A stretch of 33,194 nt of DNA from Actinomycetota bacterium (GCA_009700025.1 WLMW01000010.1:1-33194); one strand, 5' to 3'; shown: positions 17,643 to 29,344, numbered from the stretch's first letter. The notes: generated from the letters alone by a model not told the origin. Numbers and translations: made by a program.

Positions 17643-18134
17643 CTATGAAGTCAGAAGATAATCAGCAAAGGTGCGAGTTGCGTCACCCTTAAAGTGTTTC
17701 TCCTGATCTATCTGCCACCGCCGCATCTGAGCTTCTATTTCAAAGCCATCTCTATTCAGAACACGGGCTAAGCCGATTTCAGGTTCCACGTCAAGCCAAT
17801 ACAGCGTTGCACCTGCGTCTCTGACTACTTTTTGACCGGAACCAACACCTTCAATAATAAGGATATCCGTGGGTTCGTATGTGCGTGAAGAGTCAAAAGA
17901 GTTGTTCGCCCAGTTATAAATTGGAACCGTGTGTTGAAGGCGAGCAGAAAAGGCCTCAACTATCTTGGCAAGAGTTACGGTTAAATCTTGACTCAGTGGA
18001 TTTGTCCATCCAGCATAAAGATCATCCATGTGGATGACATGGAGAGACTTCTCCTTAGAAAGATCTATCTGTAACTTCGCAGCTAAAGTAGTTTTGCCAG
18101 CACCGGCAGGACCATCAATGGCTATAAGTGTCAT
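17643..18134 (-). CDS. Small P-loop kinase, uridine-kinase-like; candidate thiamine-salvage kinase
   Basis: A 163-aa P-loop kinase of the uridine/cytidine kinase type. The Walker A is GPAGAGKT (residues 8-15 from the chosen start) and HMDDLY supplies the acidic pair seen in nucleoside kinases. IIEGVGSG and the Arg-rich stretch AQMRRWQ complete the fold. The track begins at a TTG at 18161; I prefer ATG 18134, which starts just before the first beta strand (MTLIAIDG) and has GGAAG upstream. It overlaps the transporter gene by 20 bp, so the two are translationally coupled. Since that transporter has a TPP riboswitch, the kinase may phosphorylate thiamine or a precursor. That role is inferred from context only. 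Confidence 0.8.
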   Translation of the reverse strand: MTLIAIDGPAGAGKTTLAAKLQIDLSKEKSLHVIHMDDLYAGWTNPLSQDLTVTLAKIVEAFSARLQHTVPIYNWANNSFDSSRTYEPTDILIIEGVGSGQKVVRDAGATLYWLDVEPEIGLARVLNRDGFEIEAQMRRWQIDQEKHFKGDATRTFADYLLTS

Positions 18135-18690
18135 TCCAGCGCTTCCATCCGAGAATCGCAATTAACGTGAAAGCAAAATACAACACCGCCGTAAACCAAT
18201 AACCAAGTACCGCATATTGCACCGTTCCTGCTGCATCTACGATAAGCCAAACAACCCATGACTCAGTTTTTTCATAGACCATCAGAATCTGAGCAACCAG
18301 ACTTGCTACCAGTAAAAATGCATCTGACCATGTTGCTGCTGCACCGATGCGGGCTAGTACTGGGGTAAGTAGAGAAACTGAAACAATCGTTGCAACTGCC
18401 CATAACGCTCTATTGCGCGCAGAAAGTGCTCCAGGTTTAGCACCAGTTGGCGCCCAATCGCGCCAACCCCAGTAGGCGGCTAAAATAAAAATTATTTGAA
18501 GTGCGGCACTAGCAAATAAGTCAGCCTGATAAAAAAAGATCATGTACAAAAAGCTACTTGCTGCCCACCAAGGCCATGTGATGCGCTGTCCGGTTGTACC
18601 AAGCAACACACCTACAAATGAAACCACTGCTGACAAGAGCTCAAGGATTGAAACGTCATAGCCCCAAGCACTAAAAAGAATAGTTGACAT
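18115..18690 (-). CDS. pnuT: PnuC-family transporter, predicted thiamine transporter (PnuT)
   Basis: A 191-aa membrane protein of the PnuC vitamin-transporter family with about six to seven hydrophobic helices. The conserved aromatic segment AAYWGWRDW (71-79) is the substrate-site signature, and a second WKRW motif lies near the C-terminus. PnuC proteins facilitate uptake of unphosphorylated vitamins (nicotinamide riboside, thiamine, riboflavin), which are trapped by a kinase. A clear TPP riboswitch directly precedes the gene, so thiamine is the most likely substrate, and family members regulated this way are named PnuT. The ATG follows an AAAGGA ribosome binding site by 7 nt. The 3' end overlaps the small kinase. 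Confidence 0.88.
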   Translation of the reverse strand: MSTILFSAWGYDVSILELLSAVVSFVGVLLGTTGQRITWPWWAASSFLYMIFFYQADLFASAALQIIFILAAYWGWRDWAPTGAKPGALSARNRALWAVATIVSVSLLTPVLARIGAAATWSDAFLLVASLVAQILMVYEKTESWVVWLIVDAAGTVQYAVLGYWFTAVLYFAFTLIAILGWKRWNDTYSH

Positions 18691-18800: not shown

Positions 18801-19121
18801 GTGTTGAAGTTTGGGTATTTAGCGATGATTATCTTCACTGTCGTTGGCTCATTTTGGCTTGAGATTTTTTTGAAGGTGGGAGTTTTAAGAAGATTTAAGC
18901 GGGCTTTTAAGGCAATTGCGCCTATAGCTCTCCTCTTCATTGCTTGGGATGCCTATGCAATACGCAGTGGACACTGGCGCTTTGATGATCAACAGATTCT
19001 TGGAATTTATGGCCCATTTTGTATTCCGGTTGAGGAGTACTTGTTTTTCATTGTTGTTCCATTTGCGGCGATCATGACTATTGAAGCGGTACGAACCGTC
19101 AAGAAACATTGGCAGATTTAA
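18801..19121 (+). CDS. crtYc: Lycopene cyclase subunit CrtYc
   Basis: One half of the heterodimeric actinobacterial/archaeal-type lycopene cyclase, a membrane enzyme that closes beta rings on the ends of lycopene. The 106-aa protein has three hydrophobic helices. The family signature is WDAYAIRSGHW followed by GIYGPFCIPVEEYLFF, where the PVEE acids are thought to act in proton-driven cyclisation. The GTG start is 6 nt after TAGCGT, with no Shine-Dalgarno. crtYd begins 2 nt after its stop. Confidence 0.9.
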   Translation: MLKFGYLAMIIFTVVGSFWLEIFLKVGVLRRFKRAFKAIAPIALLFIAWDAYAIRSGHWRFDDQQILGIYGPFCIPVEEYLFFIVVPFAAIMTIEAVRTVKKHWQI

Positions 19122-19123
19122 CT

Positions 19124-19426
19124 ATGACATATACGCAAATTGCAATCATCGCAGTTGCATGTGCAGTCATCTTTGATTTTTATATCACTAGGAGTCGATT
19201 ATTGAGGCGTAGAGTTTTCTGGACTTCCTATGCGATTATTCTGCTTTTTCAGTTAGTCACTAATTGGTGGTTGACTTCACGAAATATTGTTATGTATCAC
19301 CCAGATGCAATCATCGGAATACGAATAGCATCTGCCCCAGTTGAGGACTTGCTTTTCGGTTTTGCTTTAGTGCTCGGGATCTCAACTAATTGGATACGAC
19401 TAGGCGCTTCAGAAAAGCAGCACTAG
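19124..19426 (+). CDS. crtYd: Lycopene cyclase subunit CrtYd
   Basis: Second half of the split lycopene cyclase. Three hydrophobic helices are present, and the conserved acidic motif appears as IASAPVEDLLFG, the counterpart of PVEEYLFF in CrtYc. The ORF track starts at TTG 19109 inside crtYc. I prefer ATG 19124, which follows the crtYc TAA by 2 nt and gives 100 aa. The partner lies directly upstream, so both halves come from one message in equal amounts. The last 41 bp overlap the 3' end of crtB on the other strand. Confidence 0.88.
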   Translation: MTYTQIAIIAVACAVIFDFYITRSRLLRRRVFWTSYAIILLFQLVTNWWLTSRNIVMYHPDAIIGIRIASAPVEDLLFGFALVLGISTNWIRLGASEKQH

Positions 19427-20258
19427 CAACACGCAGACGCCTTAAAGCCGAAGTTTTTGCACGCTTGTTAAAGATGTCGTAGCCAATTTTTTCAACTTCA
19501 TCAACGATTCCGCAGTACAGATTGCTGGCTGCCTGTATGCAGGGACGACTTGAAGCATCTAGCAATGCGATTCCTGGTGCTGCTTCAGATTGGAGTTGCC
19601 TAACGCGAGCTATCTGAAACTTGAGCGCCTCAATAATTTGAGGTGTCAAGACTCGTGCTTCCAACATTTCGCGAGAGACGCCAAACTGAGCCAGTTCTTG
19701 AATGGGAATATAAATCCGACCCCGTTCTAAATCTTCACCAACATCGCGGATGAAGTTAGCTAACTGGAAGGCGATTCCAAGTTTCTTAGCTGATTCAAAA
19801 GCCGCGATATCGCTATAACCAAGAACAGGAACCATTTCAAGGCCGATGACTGCAGCAGAGCCGTAAACATATTCCAATAAATCATCGTAGGTTTCATACT
19901 CTTGGACGGTTAGATCCATGGTCATAGAATGTAAAAATGCCTCAAAATGTGCGTGGGGAATTTGAAATTTATTCACTGTATCTATGAGCGCGCGGCCAAT
20001 TGCATCATCGCTCACCCCAGCCTTTAAATCAATAAGAATTTTTTTGCCCCAAATATCGAGAGCATCAGCTTTTTCTTGAACGCTTAATTCGGATTCCAAG
20101 TCATCAACAATTTCATCGGCATAGCGTGCGAAGCCGTAGAGGGCGTGAACGTATTGCCGTTTAGGTTTTGGCAGCAATAAAGTTGCTAAGTAGTAGGTCT
20201 TTCCATGAAGAGCATTTAATCTTTTGCACTCCGCATAAGATGCTTGGAGCTCATCCAT
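19386..20258 (-). CDS. crtB: Phytoene synthase
   Basis: Joins two GGPP molecules head to head to make phytoene, the first C40 carotenoid. The two aspartate-rich motifs that hold Mg-diphosphate are DEIVD (48-52) and RDVGEDLERGR with Asp172 and Asp176. The segment YGFARYADEIVDD is characteristic of bacterial CrtB, and the 290-aa length is normal. Its ATG directly abuts the crtI stop codon. It is the last gene of the crtE-crtI-crtB unit. Confidence 0.96.
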   Translation of the reverse strand: MDELQASYAECKRLNALHGKTYYLATLLLPKPKRQYVHALYGFARYADEIVDDLESELSVQEKADALDIWGKKILIDLKAGVSDDAIGRALIDTVNKFQIPHAHFEAFLHSMTMDLTVQEYETYDDLLEYVYGSAAVIGLEMVPVLGYSDIAAFESAKKLGIAFQLANFIRDVGEDLERGRIYIPIQELAQFGVSREMLEARVLTPQIIEALKFQIARVRQLQSEAAPGIALLDASSRPCIQAASNLYCGIVDEVEKIGYDIFNKRAKTSALRRLRVASAAFLKRLVVSN

Positions 20259-21743
20259 CTATTTAACCGGACCAACTATGCGTTCAGCAGCCAAGCGTCC
20301 TGAGATTAAAACCATCGGAACACCAACACCTGGCTGGGTACCAGAACCCGCAAAGACCACGTTCTCGATTCCGGCCGCCATATTACGTGGTCTAAAAGGT
20401 CCAGTTTGGAAAAACGTATGTGCACTTGCAAATGGTGCCCCGCGTTCCATTCCCTGGGCTTGCCAATCCAATGGAGTTGTTAGAACTTCGGTTTCTATAG
20501 CATCGCCAAAGCCTGTGTAACCACGTTTTTCTAAGGTTTCCACCATGTGATCACGATAAGGCTTCGCTTGAGTCTTCCAATCAATGTCGGCATCTAGGTT
20601 TGGCGTCGGGAAAAGCACGTAGTACGAATTCTTACCTGGAGGAGCCAAGGAGGGGTCATCTAAAGAAGGAATTGTTACTAGCACACTTGGATCAGACATT
20701 ACCTTCTTCTGTTTAATTAATTCATCAAAAACGCCATCCCATGATTCACCAAAATGGATATTGTGGTGGGCAGCAAATTCGTATTTTTTTGAGGAACCTA
20801 CCAGCATGGTGACGCACGATGGTGAATAGTTTAAACGCTTTACCGATAGTGGAGTTTTACCCAACAAGTCTCGCCATGCCACCGGTAAATCTGGATTCAA
20901 AATGACAGCGTCACATTCAATACGTTGTCCATCTTCTGTAAGTACAGCTTTTGCTCGACCGTTTGATACTTCAACCTTTGAGACTGTGGTTCCATATTTG
21001 AATTCAACACCGTGTTTGGTTGCAGCAGCTGCAAGTGCACGAGGGACAGCATGCATTCCTCCCTTAGGAAAGAAGACTCCATTTACAGAGTCCATGTATG
21101 CAATGACTGCATAAATTGCAAGAGCTTGCTGAGGACTTACACCCGCATACATAGCTTGGAATGAGTAAACCTTCTGTAGGCGCGGGTCTTTCATAAATTG
21201 ACTGACTTTAGGCGCTAAACGTCGAAATCCACCCAGTGCTATCAAGCGCGCAAGATTAGGGGTAAGTAGGTTCAAAGGCGAGTCAATGTTCCGATCAATA
21301 AAATCATTCATCTCGTACTTGTATAGCTTCGTTACAAAATCTACATATCTCGCATAACCCGCAGCTTCACTGGGGCTAATTTTTAAGGCAATTTCTGCCT
21401 CCATTTCTTGTGTGTTTGCATGCACGTCGAGTTGAGAACCATCGGCATAGTAAGCACGGTACAAAGGAGTAACAGGTTTGAGTTCCAACCAATCATTCAT
21501 ATCTTCGCCGACACAACTAAAAGCATCTTGAATCAGCGATGGCATAGTTAAAACCGATGGCCCGGTATCAAAAGAGTAACCATCTTTGTTTAGTAGCCCA
21601 TTGCGACCACCAGGTACTAACTCGCGTTCAATAACAGTTACTTTACGACCAGCTCCAGCTAAACGAAGTGCAGCACTGAGACCAGCTAATCCAGCCCCAA
21701 CGATGACAACATGATCTGTTGGGCCTTTTACTCGTGCGACCAT
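20259..21743 (-). CDS. crtI: Phytoene desaturase (lycopene-forming CrtI)
   Basis: FAD-dependent desaturase converting phytoene to lycopene. The N-terminal Rossmann motif is VVIVGAGLAGLSAA (GAGLAG at 16-21), followed by PGGRNG and the substrate-pocket motif FDTGPSVLTMP. The C-terminal flavin motif is FAGSGTQPGVGVPMVLISGR. The 494-aa length is typical. Position between crtE and crtB makes it the main phytoene desaturase, as opposed to the paralogue at 23575. Its ATG abuts the crtE stop. Confidence 0.95.
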   Translation of the reverse strand: MVARVKGPTDHVVIVGAGLAGLSAALRLAGAGRKVTVIERELVPGGRNGLLNKDGYSFDTGPSVLTMPSLIQDAFSCVGEDMNDWLELKPVTPLYRAYYADGSQLDVHANTQEMEAEIALKISPSEAAGYARYVDFVTKLYKYEMNDFIDRNIDSPLNLLTPNLARLIALGGFRRLAPKVSQFMKDPRLQKVYSFQAMYAGVSPQQALAIYAVIAYMDSVNGVFFPKGGMHAVPRALAAAATKHGVEFKYGTTVSKVEVSNGRAKAVLTEDGQRIECDAVILNPDLPVAWRDLLGKTPLSVKRLNYSPSCVTMLVGSSKKYEFAAHHNIHFGESWDGVFDELIKQKKVMSDPSVLVTIPSLDDPSLAPPGKNSYYVLFPTPNLDADIDWKTQAKPYRDHMVETLEKRGYTGFGDAIETEVLTTPLDWQAQGMERGAPFASAHTFFQTGPFRPRNMAAGIENVVFAGSGTQPGVGVPMVLISGRLAAERIVGPVK

Positions 21744-22820
21744 TTACGTGCTCCTCTTAGTTGCAATTTTAGCTAATTCAAGAAGTAATGGATGAGCTGC
21801 TTGCGCAATTAGTTCATCCTCGGCTGCTCGAAGTGCTTGGTCCGTAAGTTGATCAATCATCAACTCAAGTTTTTCTTTCGCTCCTGAAGTAATAATTATT
21901 TCCTGCAAGATTGAGATTCCCTGTGAATCCAAATCTGGTGCACCAAAATACTTCTTACTTTCTTCTCGCATTGATTCGGTACATGCCGCATCGGTTAGGG
22001 CAATAAGAACTGTACGTTTTCCTTCACGTAAATCATCACCAGCAGGCTTGCCAGTGACACTAGGTTCGCCAAATACACCCATTAAATCATCACGATATTG
22101 AAATGCTTCACCAAGGGGAAGTCCATAGTCAGAGAGTGCTTTAAGAAGTTCGGGGGACTGCTTGCCTGAGAGTGCTGCACCAATGTGAAGAGGTCGTTCA
22201 ATTGTGTATTTCCCTGATTTGTACCGTGCGATTTTTTGAGAGCGAGGCAAGTCAGTAGTTTTCTGAGTTTGTTCATGAATGTCTAAGAATTGTCCGGCCA
22301 TCAATTCAACGCGCATTTCATCATGGATAGGCATCACGTCTTGAAACTGTTTAAATGTAAGTTCTGCCGCATTGAGCATTTGGTTTGACCACACTAAAGC
22401 TAAATCTCCCAATAGCACGGCGGCAGCTAAGCCGTAAGCTGGTGCAAAACCCTCAAGCTCATCTTGCACATGCATTGATTCAAAGTGTCGATGTATTGAT
22501 GGCTTACCTCGTCGAGTATCTGACCCGTCCATTAAATCATCATGGATCAGTGCGCACGCTTGTAGTAGTTCCAAACTAGCCATTGCTTTTATTGTTGGAG
22601 TTTGTGGATTACAGCCAGCGCTTAAACATCCGGCGTAAGCAAAAAGTGGGCGTAGTCGTTTTCCGCTATCTAGCAGAAATGAAGATAATGCTTGAGCGAC
22701 TGGAGTTAAATCACTTGAAATAGTTTTTAGATAATCGGACTGCTCAGTGAGGAAACCAGCCAGCTCAATCTCCACTGCATCACGAATCTCTTGCAGTGCT
22801 GCCTTCGCCTCTAAACTCAC
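21744..22820 (-). CDS. crtE: Geranylgeranyl diphosphate synthase
   Basis: Prenyl transferase that extends allylic diphosphates with isopentenyl diphosphate to make C20 GGPP for carotenoids. The first aspartate-rich motif is HDDLMDGSDTRRG, with DDLMD as DDxxD, and the second is YRDDLMGVFGE. KRLRP binds isopentenyl diphosphate. The track uses a GTG at 22856; I prefer the GTG at 22820 (358 aa), because the protein then begins at the first helix and the codon sits exactly 6 nt after TACCGT, the spacing seen at other unit heads here. The gene leads the crtE-crtI-crtB operon. It resembles the idsA-type synthase found near pknL in other actinobacteria. Confidence 0.92.
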   Translation of the reverse strand: MSLEAKAALQEIRDAVEIELAGFLTEQSDYLKTISSDLTPVAQALSSFLLDSGKRLRPLFAYAGCLSAGCNPQTPTIKAMASLELLQACALIHDDLMDGSDTRRGKPSIHRHFESMHVQDELEGFAPAYGLAAAVLLGDLALVWSNQMLNAAELTFKQFQDVMPIHDEMRVELMAGQFLDIHEQTQKTTDLPRSQKIARYKSGKYTIERPLHIGAALSGKQSPELLKALSDYGLPLGEAFQYRDDLMGVFGEPSVTGKPAGDDLREGKRTVLIALTDAACTESMREESKKYFGAPDLDSQGISILQEIIITSGAKEKLELMIDQLTDQALRAAEDELIAQAAHPLLLELAKIATKRST

Positions 22821-22826
22821 TCCATA

Positions 22827-22832
22827 ACGGTA
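22827..22832 (-). promoter_or_regulatory. -10 box of the crtE-crtI-crtB operon
   Basis: TACCGT on the minus strand lies 6 nt before the GTG at 22820. If used, it makes the crtE transcript leaderless and excludes the upstream GTG at 22856 as the start. Confidence 0.45.
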
Positions 22833-22942
22833 CCCGTAGATAGAGGTAGTTCGCACTTCGGAAAGCCCAGCACAAGTTTGGCGAAAAACAGCCCCGTACC
22901 TCCAGCTTGTCTGTATGTGACTTATGGCGCTTTCAAGGCTTC

Positions 22943-22979: not shown

Positions 22980-23615
22980 ATGGAAACGTTAACGATGCTT
23001 ACTAAAGAAGAGTTCTATGCAAAGTGGAGTAGCTTGCATAGCGATGCACCCGTAAGCGGGGTGGTTGCTTGGTGGCTAAAGATTTCATATCGCTGTGGAT
23101 TGATTGCTACCTTGTTGAGGATTTCTCCAAATGCTTTGACGATTCTTGGGCTTATAAGTGCTGTAATAACGGCATTCACGGCAACTTCATGGTGGGCTCT
23201 AGTCTTTCTTGTATTTTCTCTTTTTTGTGATGGCATCGATGGCAGTGTTGCAATCTTCCAAAAGCGTGACAGTGCTTGGGGTGCAACTCTTGATTCAGTG
23301 GTTGACCGAGTCAGTGAAGCTTTTTGGCTGTATGCACTTTATGTAATTGGAATTCCTGCTTGGCTAGCAATATCTCTTTGGAGTGTTGCGGCATTTCAGG
23401 AGTATGCACGAGCCAAGTTAAGTTCGTTAAAAGTTTCAGAAATTGGCATTGTTACCCCGGCCGAGCGGCCAGTACGTGCAAGCTTCCTTTTTATAACGCT
23501 GGTGATGTATCAGCTAGGTATTCCAGGAATTGAGTTCGTTGCTATTGGGTTCTTGGCAATTCAAATCATAAGTTTTATTTTGGTTGCTCGTTTCGCGCAC
23601 TCCCAATTGCATTAG
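22980..23615 (+). CDS. CDP-alcohol phosphatidyltransferase family membrane protein
   Basis: A 211-aa polytopic membrane enzyme of the family that moves a phospho-alcohol from a CDP-activated donor to an acceptor alcohol, for example in phosphatidylinositol-phosphate or phosphatidylglycerol-phosphate synthesis. The signature DxxDGxxAR...GxxxDxxxD is present as CDGIDGSVAI...GATLDSVVD, with all acids kept but the Arg after Ala replaced by Ile. ATG 22995 is an alternative start. The gene lies between the two carotenoid blocks and its 3' end overlaps the desaturase paralogue by 41 bp. Its substrates cannot be told from sequence; a link to carotenoids is suggested only by position. Confidence 0.85.
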   Translation: METLTMLTKEEFYAKWSSLHSDAPVSGVVAWWLKISYRCGLIATLLRISPNALTILGLISAVITAFTATSWWALVFLVFSLFCDGIDGSVAIFQKRDSAWGATLDSVVDRVSEAFWLYALYVIGIPAWLAISLWSVAAFQEYARAKLSSLKVSEIGIVTPAERPVRASFLFITLVMYQLGIPGIEFVAIGFLAIQIISFILVARFAHSQLH

Positions 23616-25080
23616 CCACAATCTCACCGCTCATTCCAACAAGCGGAAGTCCACCACCAGGATGAGCTGAACCACCAACACAGTAGAGGTTCTTAATCGG
23701 AGAGCGGTTCTTTGCGCGCATAAAAGCTGCTTTCGCTCCATTGCTCGAAGTCCCATAAATGGAGCCACCAGGAGCATTTGCCGATAGCTCTAAATCCGCT
23801 GGCGTTCTAATTGACAGAGTCTCCAATCGATCTCTTACGGATATTCCTCGAGCTTCAATTTGATCTATAATCTTTTGAGCGTAATCTCTAGCAAATTTCT
23901 CATCACTCCAGTCGAAACCATTAACTCCGTGGAATGGAGCATTAACCAGGACACTCCAGCTTTCGAGATCTGGGCTTTTCACCATCGCGTCATCATCTGG
24001 AGAACAGATGTAAATCGTTGGTTTTTCTACTGGCTTTTTATCATTAAAAATTGAGTTAAATTCAGCGTCATAGTCTTCTGGAAATAGAATTGTATGGTGA
24101 CTTAATTTTGGGCTTTCATTTTTACGAAGACCTAATAGTAATGTGAAGCCTGCAATAGATGTGTCTGCGGCTTTTAGATTTTTGCGAACTTTACGTAGTT
24201 TTCTATTTTCACCCAAAATCAATTGGTTATAGATCAGTTCGGCATCAGCATTTGCAACAATACGGTCAGCAGTGATTTCTGATCCATCAGCCAGAACAAC
24301 TCCTTCTGCTACCCCTTTTTTGATAATAATTTGTTTAACTCTTGAGTTGAAGTGGAAATTCACTCCAACATCAACGCATCTTTGTTGCACTAGCTGTGCA
24401 AGAGTCCCCAGTCCGCCTTTTATATGCCAAGCACCAAAAGCCTCCTCAACGTATGCGATGGTTGCAAGTACTGCAGGTGCTCTGCGCGGATCTGATCCAC
24501 TATATGTTGCATAGCGATCAAGAATGAACCGGAGGTGTTGATCAGGCAATTGTTCGTTAGCAAAGGTACGCAGCGATTTCCATGGTGCAATTGTGAGGAT
24601 GTCCCTAACAAGACTCCTTCGCTTCAATAGAGAAAGTGGTGAACGAAGTTCAGATTCGATAAAAGGTTCGCGCGAAACATCCCACATTCTGGTTGCCCGC
24701 TTCATCATATTTTCCCAATACCCTGAGACTTCATCACCATAAGACTCTCTGATTGCGTTCAGAGTATGGTGTCTAGACGAGTTGGCAAATTTTACACTTG
24801 TACCATCTGTAAACCTATAGTCAAAGGATGGATTAACTGGTGTTATTTCGCAGAGTAAGCCAAGAGGTTTTCCAGTTCGGATAAAGAAATCTTTATAGAC
24901 AGCTGGCAGCGTTAATAATGATGGGCCAGTATCAAATGCAAATTTTCCAATCCACTCAGTTCGTAATTTCCCGCCATACGTATCTGATGCCTCATAAACA
25001 GTTACTGAGTGTCCAGAGCGTGCTAACCGCGCAGCCGCAGTCATTCCGCCCATTCCTGCACCGATTACAACAATTTTCAC
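23575..25080 (-). CDS. CrtI-family carotenoid desaturase, probable CrtD-type (acyclic end 3,4-desaturase)
   Basis: FAD-dependent carotenoid oxidoreductase paralogous to crtI. It begins MKIVVIGAGMGGMTAAA (GAGMGG), has the substrate motif FDTGPSLLTLP, and ends with the flavin motif CVGGSAHPGGGLPLVGMSG. The track starts at ATG 25098, but GTG 25080 overlaps the glycosyltransferase stop as GTGA and starts right at the Rossmann strand, giving 501 aa. Because the lycopene-forming crtI is elsewhere and this gene follows cruF- and glycosyltransferase-like genes, a CrtD-type C-3',4' desaturation of a 1-hydroxy end is the best guess. CrtN-like, CrtO-like or aldehyde-forming CrtP-like activity is possible. 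Confidence 0.85.
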   Translation of the reverse strand: MKIVVIGAGMGGMTAAARLARSGHSVTVYEASDTYGGKLRTEWIGKFAFDTGPSLLTLPAVYKDFFIRTGKPLGLLCEITPVNPSFDYRFTDGTSVKFANSSRHHTLNAIRESYGDEVSGYWENMMKRATRMWDVSREPFIESELRSPLSLLKRRSLVRDILTIAPWKSLRTFANEQLPDQHLRFILDRYATYSGSDPRRAPAVLATIAYVEEAFGAWHIKGGLGTLAQLVQQRCVDVGVNFHFNSRVKQIIIKKGVAEGVVLADGSEITADRIVANADAELIYNQLILGENRKLRKVRKNLKAADTSIAGFTLLLGLRKNESPKLSHHTILFPEDYDAEFNSIFNDKKPVEKPTIYICSPDDDAMVKSPDLESWSVLVNAPFHGVNGFDWSDEKFARDYAQKIIDQIEARGISVRDRLETLSIRTPADLELSANAPGGSIYGTSSNGAKAAFMRAKNRSPIKNLYCVGGSAHPGGGLPLVGMSGEIVANAIGSARNEQPK

Positions 25081-26147
25081 AATGTGCGGCCTTTCCATTG
25101 AATCTCTCGTCGCATGAGAAAAGAATAGGCGATGAGATAAATCAATAGGGCACTTGATGCAGGGTGTAGAAATGAGTAACTAAGACGACCTTTAGATTTA
25201 AAGGCACTCATCAGGCGCGATAGCACGATCAGTAGATACGCCAACAACCCGATTCTTGCGTTAGTCATGATAAAAATTAGAGGCGCAATGCCAGTCAAAA
25301 AGAGAAATACAGCAACTGAAATAGCACCCAATGTTGATCCAAAAGCAAAGCGAAGTGACTTTCCATAACCAGCTTCTATCTCATTCCAAGAAGCGTACAT
25401 TCGACACTCAGCAATATCTGCACCATTTACTACAACTCCACGAGCACCAGAGGCAACTAATCTGCGGGCTAGAAACACATCATCTAGAACTGCACTCTTT
25501 ACAGATTCATACCCACCGGCAACATCTAGAGCCGACCTTCTTGCGATAAAGAATTGACCATTTGCTACAGCCATAGAAGAAAACGATGTTCGTTCAGCAA
25601 TTCTTAGCAAAACCGTAGACATCCAGGACCACTGAAGTAACGGCTGAATTAATTTCTCACCAACAGTAAATGCCAACTGGCGCGGGTATGGTGACATGAA
25701 ATCAAGGCCAGTGGAGTTCATTAAAGAGATGGATTTGCTTATTGCATCAGGCTTTAATCGAACATCAGCATCGACTGAAATTATTATTTCACCTCTTGCT
25801 ACCTCTAATGATTGGTGAAGTGCCCAACTCTTACCAATCCAGCCTGGGGGGAGTAACGAACCTTTAATGATGTGAAAATTCTTCAACCCGGATACTGCGT
25901 CCTCGAGAAATTGGTAAGTCAGATCTTCAGAGTTATCGTCCAAAAAAATAAATTCAACATTCTTGAGTAATCGCTGATTCTTGAGGGAATCCACAAGCGC
26001 AATGACATTATTTGACTCATTGCGAAGTGGCACTAAAACACTAACGGACTCGGCAATCTCTGCAGTTTCTGAAGGGTTACGGATGGTGAAGAAGTTTATG
26101 AAAGTGATGATTACAAGAAATGTCGGCAATACAAGGATTAATTCCAT
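25077..26147 (-). CDS. GT2-family glycosyltransferase, CruG/CrtQ-like, probable carotenoid glycosyltransferase
   Basis: A membrane-bound family 2 glycosyltransferase. An N-terminal helix precedes the catalytic GT-A domain with VSVLVPLRNE, the nucleotide motif FLDDNSED, the metal motif SVDADVRL, and GWIGKSWAL, which recurs in carotenoid GT2 enzymes. Three or four C-terminal helices (LIVLSRLMSAFK region) anchor it. The track starts at TTG 26171; ATG 26147 is better, since it follows the cruF stop by 5 nt, giving 356 aa. Related enzymes add a sugar to the 1'-hydroxyl of gamma-carotene derivatives (CruG) or to carotenoid acids (CrtQ). The neighbouring CruF-like gene favours the former. Confidence 0.85.
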   Translation of the reverse strand: MELILVLPTFLVIITFINFFTIRNPSETAEIAESVSVLVPLRNESNNVIALVDSLKNQRLLKNVEFIFLDDNSEDLTYQFLEDAVSGLKNFHIIKGSLLPPGWIGKSWALHQSLEVARGEIIISVDADVRLKPDAISKSISLMNSTGLDFMSPYPRQLAFTVGEKLIQPLLQWSWMSTVLLRIAERTSFSSMAVANGQFFIARRSALDVAGGYESVKSAVLDDVFLARRLVASGARGVVVNGADIAECRMYASWNEIEAGYGKSLRFAFGSTLGAISVAVFLFLTGIAPLIFIMTNARIGLLAYLLIVLSRLMSAFKSKGRLSYSFLHPASSALLIYLIAYSFLMRREIQWKGRTL

Positions 26148-26152
26148 GAAAT

Positions 26153-26956
26153 CTATGGACGGCCAAGCCAACGAGTGAAGAAATATGGCGCAAGAATTAC
26201 TCCAAAAATACTGCCTGCGAAGAATGCAATTCCTGGCCTACTAAAGAAGAAGAGATTGCCAATGATTCCTGAAAATAGTATCCAGCCAAGATATACATCT
26301 ACCGCAGTATGAGAAGCACCAATTTTTCGTAAATCCCGGGGGAGAATCAGATGCAAGCTACCTATTAATCCCATCCCGGCCAGTAACCAACCAAAAGTAT
26401 TCGAGAGTGGAATTTCTGGTTGGAAAGGAACATGCGCGCCTTTAACTACCCAGGTCCAGCGACCTGAAGAGACCATGAGTGGGTCAAGAAATAAATCCCA
26501 GGCAGCAAGTGCAACTCCACCATAGAGAAAAATCCAGTTACCAGCAATTCTCCTTGATGCAATAAGTATTGGATGCGCCATCATAATCCAAGCAAAGGGG
26601 ACAACTAACGGAACTGCAAAAACATAAAAACCCAAGTCTGTCGAATAACTATATTCACCAAATGGCCACGAAGTGAGGACACCTATATGCTCGACAATAA
26701 GTGCGAAAAAGAAAGTGAAAGCTAAATATGTAAGCGCATATCGACCGCCAAATGCAAGTAATGCATGTAACAGCATTGCGCCTGCACCCCAGTAAACAAC
26801 TGAGATAGTAATGAGGCGAAGTGCTTCGCCATCTACCAGAGGATAAATAATTTGCAGTCCGATAGCTATTGAGAGAACAACCACCAGCATTGTGTTCATG
26901 CGCCGTGAGATGCTTCTATGGCGATTGCGTTTAGGTGTGTAGTGGCGAATCGACAT
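26153..26956 (-). CDS. cruF: CruF-like carotenoid 1',2'-hydratase (carotenoid biosynthesis membrane protein, DUF422)
   Basis: A 267-aa protein with about seven transmembrane helices and a basic N-terminus. The family core is visible as LIVEHIGVLTSWPFGEYSY, followed by VPFAWIMMAHP and AAWDLFLDPLMVSSGRWTW, with conserved Glu, His, Asp and Trp. CruF hydrates the psi end of gamma-carotene or lycopene, giving the 1'-hydroxyl later desaturated and glycosylated. The downstream glycosyltransferase and desaturase fit that sequence of steps. Internal ATGs at residues 20 and 23 leave some doubt about the exact start. The assignment comes from recalled family features, so cyclase-like paralogues are not excluded. 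Confidence 0.82.
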   Translation of the reverse strand: MSIRHYTPKRNRHRSISRRMNTMLVVVLSIAIGLQIIYPLVDGEALRLITISVVYWGAGAMLLHALLAFGGRYALTYLAFTFFFALIVEHIGVLTSWPFGEYSYSTDLGFYVFAVPLVVPFAWIMMAHPILIASRRIAGNWIFLYGGVALAAWDLFLDPLMVSSGRWTWVVKGAHVPFQPEIPLSNTFGWLLAGMGLIGSLHLILPRDLRKIGASHTAVDVYLGWILFSGIIGNLFFFSRPGIAFFAGSIFGVILAPYFFTRWLGRP

Positions 26957-26977
26957 GGTTGTAATTCTGCCCTATAA

Positions 26978-27640
26978 CTAGCCTTTGGTATTAATTGAGC
27001 CACGTACATTTATAAGCGCAAAGCGTGAAAACAGCTCTTCGGAGTACCACGAGTACTTTTTTGTCGCTGCAATTGCAGCATTATGAGCTTCACCCCGATA
27101 TGCAAAATCAGTAAGAGCGCCCGAGGACTCCCAAATTGAGAATGTGCCCTGAAGACCTATAGGCGCTTCTCCGATTCCTATAGCTGCTATGAGACCCGAA
27201 GAATCATGAAGCGAAGAGGTTACTGGTGGTACTGCGCGCCAAAATCTAAAGTTTTGAATGAATTTAATTCGTGCCCTCGTTATAGCGACTACCTGACCAT
27301 CCCATTTCTTTACTGAAGGCGTGAAGGGCTCTTGTTTTGACCACTTTCCATGAGATGAAATGGGTTCTAGAACTGCACGAAATTCGCTAATGGAGTTCTT
27401 GCGCCACTGTTTGACTACAAAGCATCGATCGAAATCTTCTACATCGTTGACTTGTGCGATTAATCCCCATCGCAGTGGATCTGCATCTTGTGGCGTAAAA
27501 GTTTCGCCTTTGCCAGTTCCTAGAGATTTGAAAAAACCAACATTCTTAGAACTCTTGAGAGAAAATCTTTCCAAAGCCATTGCTACTAAAGCAAAAGGTA
27601 ATGCCCTTTTTTTAATTGTCCAAAAATATGCAACTATCAC
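26978..27640 (-). CDS. crtA: CrtA-like (spheroidene monooxygenase family) carotenoid oxygenase
   Basis: A 220-aa soluble protein matching spheroidene monooxygenase, the heme enzyme that places a keto group at C-2 of acyclic carotenoid ends. Family landmarks seen in order are KSLGTGKGETFTP, a Trp-rich centre, LEPISSHGKWS, ARIKFIQNFRFWRAVP, IGIGEAPIGLQGTFSIWES, and the C-terminal WYSEELFSRFALI. CrtA is best known from purple bacteria; here it stands at the head of the hydratase, glycosyltransferase and desaturase genes, so a 2'-keto group on the glycosylated end is predicted. The GTG start directly abuts the upstream small gene's TAA, indicating coupling. Confidence 0.85.
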   Translation of the reverse strand: MIVAYFWTIKKRALPFALVAMALERFSLKSSKNVGFFKSLGTGKGETFTPQDADPLRWGLIAQVNDVEDFDRCFVVKQWRKNSISEFRAVLEPISSHGKWSKQEPFTPSVKKWDGQVVAITRARIKFIQNFRFWRAVPPVTSSLHDSSGLIAAIGIGEAPIGLQGTFSIWESSGALTDFAYRGEAHNAAIAATKKYSWYSEELFSRFALINVRGSINTKG

Positions 27641-27862
27641 TTAGTGCCAGCGCACCATTCCAATTAATCCAGCCGTTGCATAGAAGAACTGCAGAAAGAG
27701 AATTCCTCTATGTTTTCCTAGATAAGCCCAGATTCCAATCAATATCGAAGAAGTCAAGAGGAGAAAAAAGCCAACGAACTCTGCACCAACATTTGCTGCA
27801 ACTAACAGCGAATAGATGATTGCTGTTAAAACACCAAGCCATTCAAATACTCGAGACTTCAT
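27641..27862 (-). CDS. Small three-helix membrane protein of unknown function
   Basis: A 73-aa protein almost entirely made of three hydrophobic segments, about residues 7-26, 29-50 and 54-71, ending GLIGMVRWH. I do not recognise a named family. The C-terminal LQFFYATAGLIGMVRW loosely resembles the LQ-rich helix with a terminal Gly/Trp pattern seen in the PnuC-type protein here, so a half-size PnuC/SemiSWEET-like protein is conceivable but weakly supported. ATG 27862 is preferred over the track's 27880 because it follows the ybaK stop by 4 nt. It abuts the crtA start, placing it firmly in the carotenoid transcription unit. Confidence 0.65.
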   Translation of the reverse strand: MKSRVFEWLGVLTAIIYSLLVAANVGAEFVGFFLLLTSSILIGIWAYLGKHRGILFLQFFYATAGLIGMVRWH

Positions 27863-27866
27863 TAAG

Positions 27867-28352
27867 TTATTCTCCAACAATCATTGATTTGGCACCAGTG
27901 ACACGAACCAACTCTTCAAAAGTTGTTGGATAAACGGCATGGGGATGGCCAGCCGCTGCCCAAATAATTTGATAGTCATTGAGCGCTTCATCTATCAGGG
28001 TCACTACGGGTGAAACCCAGCCAATGGGAGCGACTCCTCCTATTGAATAACCTGAAGAAGCTTTCACAAAATCAGCATCAACGCGGCCTAAAGAATCTAT
28101 GCCAAGCTTTAATGCGACAAGTTCAGTATCCACACGATGACGGCCTGAAGTAATGATTAAAAGAGGCGAGCCATTGGGTAATTTAAAAATAAGTGATGAT
28201 GCAATTTGACCAACTTCAACATTCAGGCTGGCTGCTGCTTCAGTTGCAGTACGAGCGCTCTCAGACAAAATATGGACTTCGCCGCTAACTCCTAATGAGT
28301 TTCGAGCCTCAATGAATCTTTTTACCGCGGCCTTTTCGAGGATATTTTCCAT
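27867..28352 (-). CDS. YbaK/EbsC-type aminoacyl-tRNA deacylase
   Basis: A 161-aa protein of the YbaK/ProX superfamily, which hydrolyses mischarged Cys-tRNA-Pro, Ala-tRNA-Pro and similar species as a trans-editing factor. Conserved parts are VGQIASSLIFK (with the lysine used in catalysis), SGYSIGGVAPIG, and AAAGHPHAVYPTT near the C-terminus. The length is normal for a free-standing domain. It lies 26 bp downstream of the sulfotransferase and 4 bp upstream of the small membrane protein gene. It is a housekeeping function embedded in a carotenoid unit, with no evident metabolic link. Confidence 0.9.
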   Translation of the reverse strand: MENILEKAAVKRFIEARNSLGVSGEVHILSESARTATEAAASLNVEVGQIASSLIFKLPNGSPLLIITSGRHRVDTELVALKLGIDSLGRVDADFVKASSGYSIGGVAPIGWVSPVVTLIDEALNDYQIIWAAAGHPHAVYPTTFEELVRVTGAKSMIVGE

Positions 28353-28378: not shown

Positions 28379-29344
28379 TTAGTTCAGATCCGAATAGAAA
28401 CCAATACTATCTCTACGAAGCCGCGCAACCATTTCGTTATAGGCAGGGATAAATTCAGGATCCTTAATTTCTTCTCGCCAGCGACCCATTCTTGCAGCGG
28501 ATGGTTGCATCCGTTCGTGCAAAAAATCCGCCATCTGTGGAGAATCTTCAATCTTAAGAAAAGTCAGAAGCGAATTATAAGTCTCAGTCGATTTTTGGGA
28601 CACGAGCTCTTCGATTGAAATTGTAAGTTGTTGATCTTTAGGTACTCGTGATAGCGAAGAATGACCGGCTCTTATTCGCTTTTCAAACCACTCAATTCCT
28701 TCTAGGGCAGTGGTAGGTCCCCAGTCCTTAGTTAGCAATGAAGCGATTGTATCTCTCGGATCACGGACCATATTAATGAAAAGAGCGGTCGGATAAAGCT
28801 GAAAGAGGCGGTGAGCATTTGGAATATTCATAGGTGTCGTGTCAATCCAGAATTTTTCACCCCTATTATTACTTTGATGATTGATGAGTTGAATGAGTAA
28901 TTTTCTCGCTGCTTTTACTTTATTTCGGAAAACGCTTACTTTAAATTCACTGAAAGAGGAATCAAATTCTTCACGGGTAATGCCAGAGAGCAATCCACGT
29001 CCATGTGGAGGTGGCGCATCGATATCCCACCAGGTTGAATTGATTTTCGCCTCTAAGGCAATTAGAGCATTTCCAACCTTTTCTCTCTCACGAATTTTGC
29101 GATCACGTCTGGTCCGCAAGTTATAAAAGGGGATAGGATTATTTTCTTTAGGCGGCGCGAACTGAGAACCAAAGGTAAGATCTAGAAGTCCACCAGCGTT
29201 CGTTGTAAATTTCAATTCAATAGGAAGGCTAGCCCGGATAGCAGGGTGATTGTCGAGTAAGTCAGCGATAATAGTTGTTCCACTTCGACCTGTTCCGCCG
29301 ACAAAAATCATTATCGGCGTACGACTTTGATTCTCAATTCCCAC
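28379..29344 (-). CDS. PAPS-dependent sulfotransferase (family 1/3 type)
   Basis: A 321-aa soluble sulfotransferase. The 5'-phosphosulfate loop is GGTGRSGTT (16-24) and the 3'-phosphate motif is NMVRDPRDTIASL. The enzyme would transfer sulfate from PAPS to a hydroxyl or amine of a glycan, lipid or small molecule; the acceptor is not predictable. It shares the architecture and several motifs (ASLP-E-F, GLLDL, EELV-QK) with the divergent gene at 29449, so the two are paralogues. The GTG start is 6 nt after TATTCT and has no close ribosome binding site. ybaK, a small membrane protein gene and the crtA-cruF block follow on the same strand. Confidence 0.88.
   Translation of the reverse strand: MGIENQSRTPIMIFVGGTGRSGTTIIADLLDNHPAIRASLPIELKFTTNAGGLLDLTFGSQFAPPKENNPIPFYNLRTRRDRKIREREKVGNALIALEAKINSTWWDIDAPPPHGRGLLSGITREEFDSSFSEFKVSVFRNKVKAARKLLIQLINHQSNNRGEKFWIDTTPMNIPNAHRLFQLYPTALFINMVRDPRDTIASLLTKDWGPTTALEGIEWFEKRIRAGHSSLSRVPKDQQLTISIEELVSQKSTETYNSLLTFLKIEDSPQMADFLHERMQPSAARMGRWREEIKDPEFIPAYNEMVARLRRDSIGFYSDLN

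What the first reader, a model, noticed from the sequence alone, without database searches (positions are those of the whole stretch)
23575..27640. Four-gene block for a modified, glycosylated acyclic carotenoid end
Seen: crtA-like, cruF-like, GT2 and CrtI-paralogue genes run in one direction with spacings of -4 to 21 bp. Known: CruF hydrates psi ends, CrtD desaturates at 3',4', CruG-type GT2 enzymes glycosylate the 1'-hydroxyl, and CrtA adds a 2-keto group. Inferred: with CrtYc/CrtYd closing one ring, the product would be a monocyclic carotenoid glycoside resembling myxol, phleixanthophyll or salinixanthin. In a rhodopsin-bearing freshwater actinobacterium such a pigment could act as an antenna, as salinixanthin does for xanthorhodopsin. 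No rhodopsin or retinal-forming dioxygenase gene is in this window.
Basis: partly seen in the sequence, partly recalled or inferred. Interest (0 to 1): 0.65.

Follow-up and report, generated by a model that had tools for sequence, protein, structure and literature searches.

The report
Carotenoid tail-end modification and glycosylation operon
A freshwater planktonic actinobacterium carries four tightly packed genes that probably oxidise the open end of a one-ringed carotenoid and attach a sugar; the operon is conserved across its genus and found in many other actinobacteria, so it is a little-studied member of a known kind rather than something new.

Summary
Observation confirmed. crtA-, cruF-, GT2- and crtD-like genes lie at 26978-27640, 26153-26956, 25077-26171 and 23575-25098 (-), nearly back to back. 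All 25 genus loci examined keep the same order, strand and tight spacing; all 21 genus genomes at least 90% complete have CrtA, CruF and GT2. CrtD and CrtI are separate clades. The genome also carries actinorhodopsin with the antenna-site glycine, Blh, and a second, paralogous CrtYc/CrtYd pair beside blh, so retinal and xanthophyll branches probably have their own cyclases. Likely product: deoxymyxol-type monocyclic carotenoid glycoside (1'-OH, 3',4'-ene, 2'-oxygen). Corrections: NCBIfam names CruG a 2'-O-glycosyltransferase, yet GT2 tracks CruF even without CrtA, which favours the 1'-OH; CrtA homologues include a 2-hydroxylase (myxol) as well as the 2-ketolase, and the tree cannot decide. The antenna idea is possible but not specific: eight of nine block-bearing genomes outside the genus lack a rhodopsin, and no known ring ketolase or hydroxylase was found. 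A secondary carotenoid branch in acI was, as I recall, already reported (Dwulit-Smith 2018, not readable here).

The parts
26978..27640 (-). crtA-like acyclic-carotenoid C-2 oxygenase (2-hydroxylase or 2-ketolase)
   Evidence: NF045923 154.9 bits; invariant core residues kept in the alignment; tree places it in an actinobacterial clade outside both characterised groups
26153..26956 (-). cruF-like 1',2'-hydratase (Caroten_synth, membrane protein)
   Evidence: PF04240 E=7e-29, TIGR03460 85 bits
25077..26171 (-). GT2 glycosyltransferase, CruG/HpnB-like; likely start ATG 26147
   Evidence: PF00535 E=2e-20; NF045692 CruG 131 bits; always with CruF in class relatives
23575..25098 (-). crtD-like 1-hydroxycarotenoid 3,4-desaturase (CrtI paralogue); alternative start GTG 25080
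   Evidence: NF045637 334 bits against 313 for crtI_fam; falls in the CrtD clade, SH-aLRT 99
27641..27862 (-). 73-aa hydrophobic ORF (79 aa from an upstream TTG) abutting crtA; unknown
   Evidence: conserved in about 10 close genus members at 76-87% identity; only sub-threshold similarity to PnuC
27867..28352 (-). YbaK-like aminoacyl-tRNA editing domain gene at the head of the run; probably unrelated function
   Evidence: PF04073 E=3e-19; close to crtA in some other families too
20259..21743 (-). crtI phytoene desaturase
   Evidence: TIGR02734 524 bits, CrtI clade
19386..20258 (-). crtB phytoene synthase
   Evidence: PF00494 E=8.5e-67
21744..22856 (-). crtE-type polyprenyl (GGPP) synthase
   Evidence: PF00348 E=6e-49
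18801..19121 (+). crtYc lycopene cyclase subunit, crt-locus paralogue
   Evidence: PF18916; crt-locus clade in the cyclase tree
19109..19426 (+). crtYd lycopene cyclase subunit, crt-locus paralogue
   Evidence: PF18916; crt-locus clade in the cyclase tree

Best explanation
The four genes form one operon that finishes the open (psi) end of a carotenoid. CrtE/CrtB/CrtI make lycopene; a CrtYc/CrtYd pair closes one end to gamma-carotene; CruF adds water across C-1',2' (1'-OH); CrtD adds the 3',4' double bond (1'-hydroxytorulene); CrtA oxygenates C-2' (OH gives deoxymyxol/plectaniaxanthin, double oxidation gives the 2'-ketone); the GT2 enzyme puts a sugar on an end-group hydroxyl, more likely the 1'-OH than the 2'-OH. 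The product is a polar, membrane-anchored monocyclic carotenoid glycoside (about 730.48 Da for a deoxymyxol hexoside, 728.47 for the keto form). Shown here: gene content, order, conservation, paralogy, and that CrtA and GT2 occur only with CruF across the class genomes searched. Inferred: each reaction, the order of steps, the sugar, the position of the sugar, and membrane photoprotection as main role with antenna use as a possible extra.
For: Family assignments. Same order, strand and tight spacing in 25/25 genus loci. CrtA, CruF and GT2 all present in every one of 21 genus genomes at least 90% complete. In 39 genomes of other families of the class the genes nest: GT2 (21) and CrtA (16) never occur without CruF (23), hypergeometric P=4e-9 and 6.5e-6, no phylogenetic correction. 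The gene set recurs near crtB/crtI in Nonomuraea, Streptosporangium, Actinomadura, Solirubrobacterales and Acidimicrobiia. CrtI and CrtD paralogues fall in separate clades. A CrtO-like beta-ring ketolase lies within or beside the block in five other actinobacteria, which fits a product with one ring. In E. coli, crtY+cruF+crtD+crtA-OH of Nonlabens spongiae turn lycopene into deoxymyxol (PMC11855829). GT2 relatives sit beside CruF and an acyltransferase in Deinococcus deserti and Cytobacillus.
Against: The four proteins do not reach the equivalog cut-offs. CrtYc/CrtYd can close both ends, so mono- against bicyclic output is not read from sequence. The CrtA tree does not decide OH against keto. 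No pigment data for this lineage.
Confidence: 0.8

Rival explanations
1. The product is a light-harvesting antenna for actinorhodopsin, docked at the helix-E glycine, as salinixanthin in xanthorhodopsin.
For: Rhodopsin and Blh are in the genome. The glycine equivalent to XR Gly156/Kin4B8 Gly153 is kept in all 29 rhodopsins that cover the site, and the GVLST segment equals that of Kin4B8. Ca. Aquiluna actinorhodopsin binds a native carotenoid (PMC8113403).
Against: In the class, 8 of 9 block-bearing genomes tested have no rhodopsin. SrXR needs a 4-keto and Kin4B8 a hydroxylated ring (PMC13093654), yet no CrtZ (PF04116), CrtW/CrtR (PF00487) or true CrtO was found. Of the Kin4B8 anchoring residues, Thr157 and Tyr204 are kept but Ser208 and Tyr209 are not (read). 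Canthaxanthin did not bind ActR-13023 and salinixanthin lowered its pumping rate (PMC8113403).
Confidence: 0.25
2. GT2 glycosylates the 2'-OH made by CrtA (CruG-like), giving a myxol 2'-glycoside type pigment.
For: Best NCBIfam model is the 2'-O-glycosyltransferase CruG (131 bits; Nonomuraea homologue 255); CrtA homologues can be 2-hydroxylases.
Against: Six class genomes have CruF and GT2 but no CrtA; Deinococcus deserti and Cytobacillus pair GT2 with CruF with no CrtA nearby, so the acceptor there should be the CruF-made hydroxyl.
Confidence: 0.4
3. CrtA acts as a 2-ketolase as in purple bacteria, giving a 2'-keto-1'-O-glycoside.
For: The best model is spheroidene monooxygenase; in Rubrivivax CrtA double hydroxylation gives the ketone (PMC2889829).
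Against: NF045923 also matches the CrtA of a flavobacterial MAG whose cluster has the Nonlabens myxol gene content (225.7 bits, against 154.9 here); the window protein groups with neither that set nor the Rhodobacterales CrtA.
Confidence: 0.4
4. The block acts on lycopene at both ends and yields acyclic pigments; the cyclases serve retinal only.
For: Several genus members have no cyclase at the crt locus, only elsewhere, mostly near blh.
Against: This genome and 12 other genus genomes keep two cyclase pairs, here one of them at the crt locus, and near-complete members without a detected blh still have a cyclase (e.g. G015 at the crt locus).
Confidence: 0.12

Closest known systems
[quoted passage not shown]
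   Same: Same psi-end functions CruF, CrtD and CrtA family, plus a cyclase
   Different: Here a glycosyltransferase is in the operon, CrtZ was not found, the cyclase is CrtYc/CrtYd instead of CrtY, and the CrtA sequence lies in another clade
Cyanobacterial myxoxanthophyll genes cruF/cruG
   Same: CruF hydratase and a GT2 whose best model is CruG
   Different: Linked operon, a CrtA-type oxygenase is present, low scores to the cyanobacterial models (CruF 36.8 of cut-off 400; CruG 131 of 600)
Nonomuraea/Streptosporangium/Actinomadura CruF-CrtD-GT2-CrtA block beside crtB-crtI
   Same: Same four families in one run next to the core crt genes
   Different: Gene order differs, CrtA belongs to another actinobacterial clade
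Deinococcus deserti crtO-cruF-acyltransferase-doxX-GT2-crtD cluster
   Same: CruF, GT2 and CrtD in one cluster
   Different: Has CrtO and an acyltransferase, no CrtA nearby
acI secondary carotenoid branch (Dwulit-Smith et al. 2018, recalled, not readable here)
   Same: Probably the same genes in the same lineage
   Different: To my memory the complex carotenoid was not chemically identified

Membership tests
CruF (Caroten_synth) 1',2'-hydratase | Match to PF04240 over its length | tested here: met
   101.7 bits against cut-off 25, positions 8-207/209
CruF (Caroten_synth) 1',2'-hydratase | Equivalog cut-off of a CruF model | tested here: not met
   TIGR03460 85.3 of 154.7; NF045693 36.8 of 400
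CrtA family | Homology over the whole protein with the family's invariant residues | tested here: met
   NF045923 positions 13-223/226; the window protein carries the invariant columns, incl. the single invariant His
CrtA spheroidene monooxygenase (2-ketolase) proper | Equivalog score and grouping with purple-bacterial CrtA | tested here: not met
   154.9 of 300 bits; outside the Rhodobacterales pair in the tree
CrtA-OH 2-hydroxylase | Grouping with flavobacterial myxol-cluster CrtA | tested here: not met
   L185, a MAG with the myxol gene content, lies in another clade
CruG 2'-O-glycosyltransferase | Equivalog cut-off NF045692 | tested here: not met
   131 of 600 bits, though CruG is the best model
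CrtD 3,4-desaturase | Clade distinct from the same genome's CrtI and shared with other block CrtDs | tested here: met
   CrtD clade of 18, SH-aLRT 99; quick tree, some rows with odd composition
CrtYc/CrtYd heterodimeric lycopene cyclase | Two adjacent Lycopene_cyc subunits | tested here: met
   PF18916 33.5 and 46.8 bits over cut-off 27
CrtYc/CrtYd heterodimeric lycopene cyclase | Ring type and one- or two-end closure | not testable with these tools
   Needs expression
Salinixanthin-type antenna pigment | 4-keto ring from a ketolase | tested here: not met
   No CrtW and the third CrtI-like protein is not CrtO (81 bits against 298 for the D. deserti CrtO); genome 85% complete
Carotenoid-binding xanthorhodopsin | Glycine at the fenestration | tested here: met
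   Gly149 in actinorhodopsin L001; 29/29 sequences covering the site

The most novel reading that the evidence does not exclude
In acI-type actinobacteria two paralogous cyclase pairs split one lycopene pool: the blh-linked pair feeds retinal, the crt-linked pair feeds a deoxymyxol-type glycoside, and the latter serves as antenna in an actinorhodopsin pocket that accepts a ring with neither keto nor hydroxyl group.
Probability: 0.15. Interest if true: 0.7.

Novelty: new member of a known kind. Interest (0 to 1): 0.4.

Why it matters
These bacteria are among the most abundant in lakes, and the chemical structure of their non-retinal carotenoid appears not to be settled. The block gives definite masses and end-group choices to test, and the split between two cyclase pairs suggests how one cell could make both retinal and a complex xanthophyll. 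Whether that xanthophyll is the actinorhodopsin antenna becomes a direct question.

Tried and rejected
(1) Deciding 2-OH against 2-keto from CrtA phylogeny: both characterised groups lie outside the window's clade. The careful tree did not finish; the quick tree is used. (2) A CrtO ketolase: the third CrtI-like protein (G000:C17) is a general actinobacterial FAD oxidoreductase, about 50% identical in Streptomyces. (3) The P450 (G000:C18) sits with an SDR and a phosphotriesterase-like gene, a catabolic-looking setting. (4) The sulfotransferase upstream (28379-29344) as part of the pathway: found in none of the fetched relatives. (5) Solved structures for CrtA and CruF: no match. (8) Dwulit-Smith 2018 is not held. 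(9) CruC references could not be obtained, so GT2 was not compared with the 1'-O-glucosyltransferase of green sulfur bacteria.

Full report
Observation. Pfam and NCBIfam support each family, always below equivalog cut-offs, so the names are family names and not proven functions. From the sequence, crtA and cruF are 21 bp apart; GT2 probably starts at ATG 26147, 5 bp after the cruF stop; crtD starts at GTG 25080 (4-bp overlap) or ATG 25098 (22-bp overlap, kept in most relatives). A 73-aa hydrophobic ORF and a YbaK-like gene precede crtA with almost no gap.

Conservation. CrtA is found in 70 of 100 related genomes. In 25 of 25 genus loci the four genes keep order, strand and tight spacing. All 21 genus genomes at least 90% complete hold CrtA, CruF and GT2. 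In 39 genomes of other families of the class, CruF occurs in 23, GT2 in 21, CrtA in 16; neither GT2 nor CrtA ever occurs without CruF (the P values of 4e-9 and 6.5e-6 take no account of shared ancestry). Six genomes have CruF and GT2 without CrtA. This nesting is what a pathway would give in which hydration comes first and C-2 oxygenation is an addition.

Spread. A scan of public genomes found the same families together in Nonomuraea, Streptosporangium, Actinomadura, Thermomonospora, Solirubrobacterales, Acidimicrobiia, an Euzebyaceae and a Frankiales MAG, mostly near crtB/crtI; Nonomuraea gerenzanensis has CruF-CrtD-GT2-CrtA. In five actinobacterial loci a CrtO-like ketolase (42-44% identical to the Deinococcus deserti protein) lies within or beside the block. 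The block is thus an old and common actinobacterial gene set and not special to this lineage.

Reactions. In E. coli, crtY, cruF, crtD and crtA-OH of Nonlabens spongiae convert lycopene through 1'-hydroxy-gamma-carotene and 1'-hydroxytorulene to deoxymyxol (PMC11855829). The window has the same functions with CrtYc/CrtYd as cyclase, no CrtZ anywhere in the held genome, and a glycosyltransferase in addition.

Two corrections. Even so, the 1'-hydroxyl is the better guess, since GT2 relatives occur with CruF and without CrtA in six class genomes, and next to CruF with no CrtA nearby in Deinococcus deserti and Cytobacillus. CrtA need not be a ketolase: Bacteroidetes homologues are hydroxylases, and Rubrivivax CrtA hydroxylates twice to a ketone (PMC2889829). 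The CrtA tree puts the window's enzyme in an actinobacterial clade (SH-aLRT 99) away from both the Rhodobacterales proteins and the flavobacterial ones from a myxol-like cluster, so OH against keto stays open.

Cyclases. The genome has two CrtYc/CrtYd pairs, one in the window and one divergent from blh on another contig. Across the genus the crt-locus and the blh-locus pairs form two clades (local support 0.975 and 0.957; one divergent crt-locus pair, L043, falls beside the blh clade with weak support). Twelve other genus genomes have two pairs. The simplest reading is one cyclase pair for retinal and one for the xanthophyll; genomes with only one pair must share it. Ring number per molecule cannot be read from sequence.

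Rhodopsin and antenna. The genome encodes an actinorhodopsin and Blh. The glycine that opens the carotenoid site in xanthorhodopsin (Gly156) and Kin4B8 (Gly153) is present here (Gly149) and in all 29 sequences that cover the site (the script's printed column is one residue before the glycine, which follows in every row). The rhodopsin of the actinobacterium Ca. Aquiluna binds a native carotenoid of unsolved structure (PMC8113403). But the known pockets need a 4-keto or a hydroxylated ring (PMC13093654); no known ring-modifying enzyme was found here, in a genome that is 85% complete and has one P450 of unknown role. Two of the four polar Kin4B8 pocket residues are kept (Thr157, Tyr204) and two are not (Ser208, Tyr209). 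And of nine block-bearing class genomes tested, eight lack a rhodopsin. So an antenna role is possible as a later use, not as the block's origin.

Prior work. The paper on acI actinorhodopsin (Dwulit-Smith et al. 2018, AEM 84:e01678-18) is cited in the held papers but not held. From memory, its abstract says that all acI clades contain genes for a secondary branch of the carotenoid pathway implying a complex carotenoid.

Verdict. A real and strongly conserved operon of known enzyme families, with a plausible but unproven product; interest 0.4.

Noticed in passing
window 27641-27862: Small hydrophobic ORF (73 aa) abutting crtA, kept only in the closest genus members, with sub-threshold similarity to the first part of PnuC; function unknown.
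   Followed up: partly
window 27867-28352: YbaK-like deacylase gene next to crtA here and in some other actinobacterial families (e.g. L060, L061) and genus members (L041, L042); in many genus members it lies about 1 kb away.
   Followed up: partly
window 28379-29344: Sulfotransferase (PF13469) directly upstream on the same strand, absent from the fetched relatives. A Palleronia plasmid has a sulfotransferase right after a related GT2 (L119).
   Followed up: partly
window 22980-23615: CDP-alcohol phosphatidyltransferase gene, convergent with crtD (41-bp overlap), kept between crtE and crtD across the genus; no evident carotenoid role.
   Followed up: partly
L210 and L217 (G014, G056): CrtYc/CrtYd pairs outside the crt locus without blh beside them, though G014 has an actinorhodopsin: possible loss of retinal synthesis with the cyclase kept.
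   Followed up: no
L054, L062, L063, L174, L196: CrtO-like ketolase within or beside the CrtA/CruF block in other actinobacteria, suggesting 4-keto monocyclic glycosides there.
   Followed up: partly
window 18115-18690: PnuC-like nicotinamide riboside transporter gene beside the crt genes, conserved in the genus.
   Followed up: no
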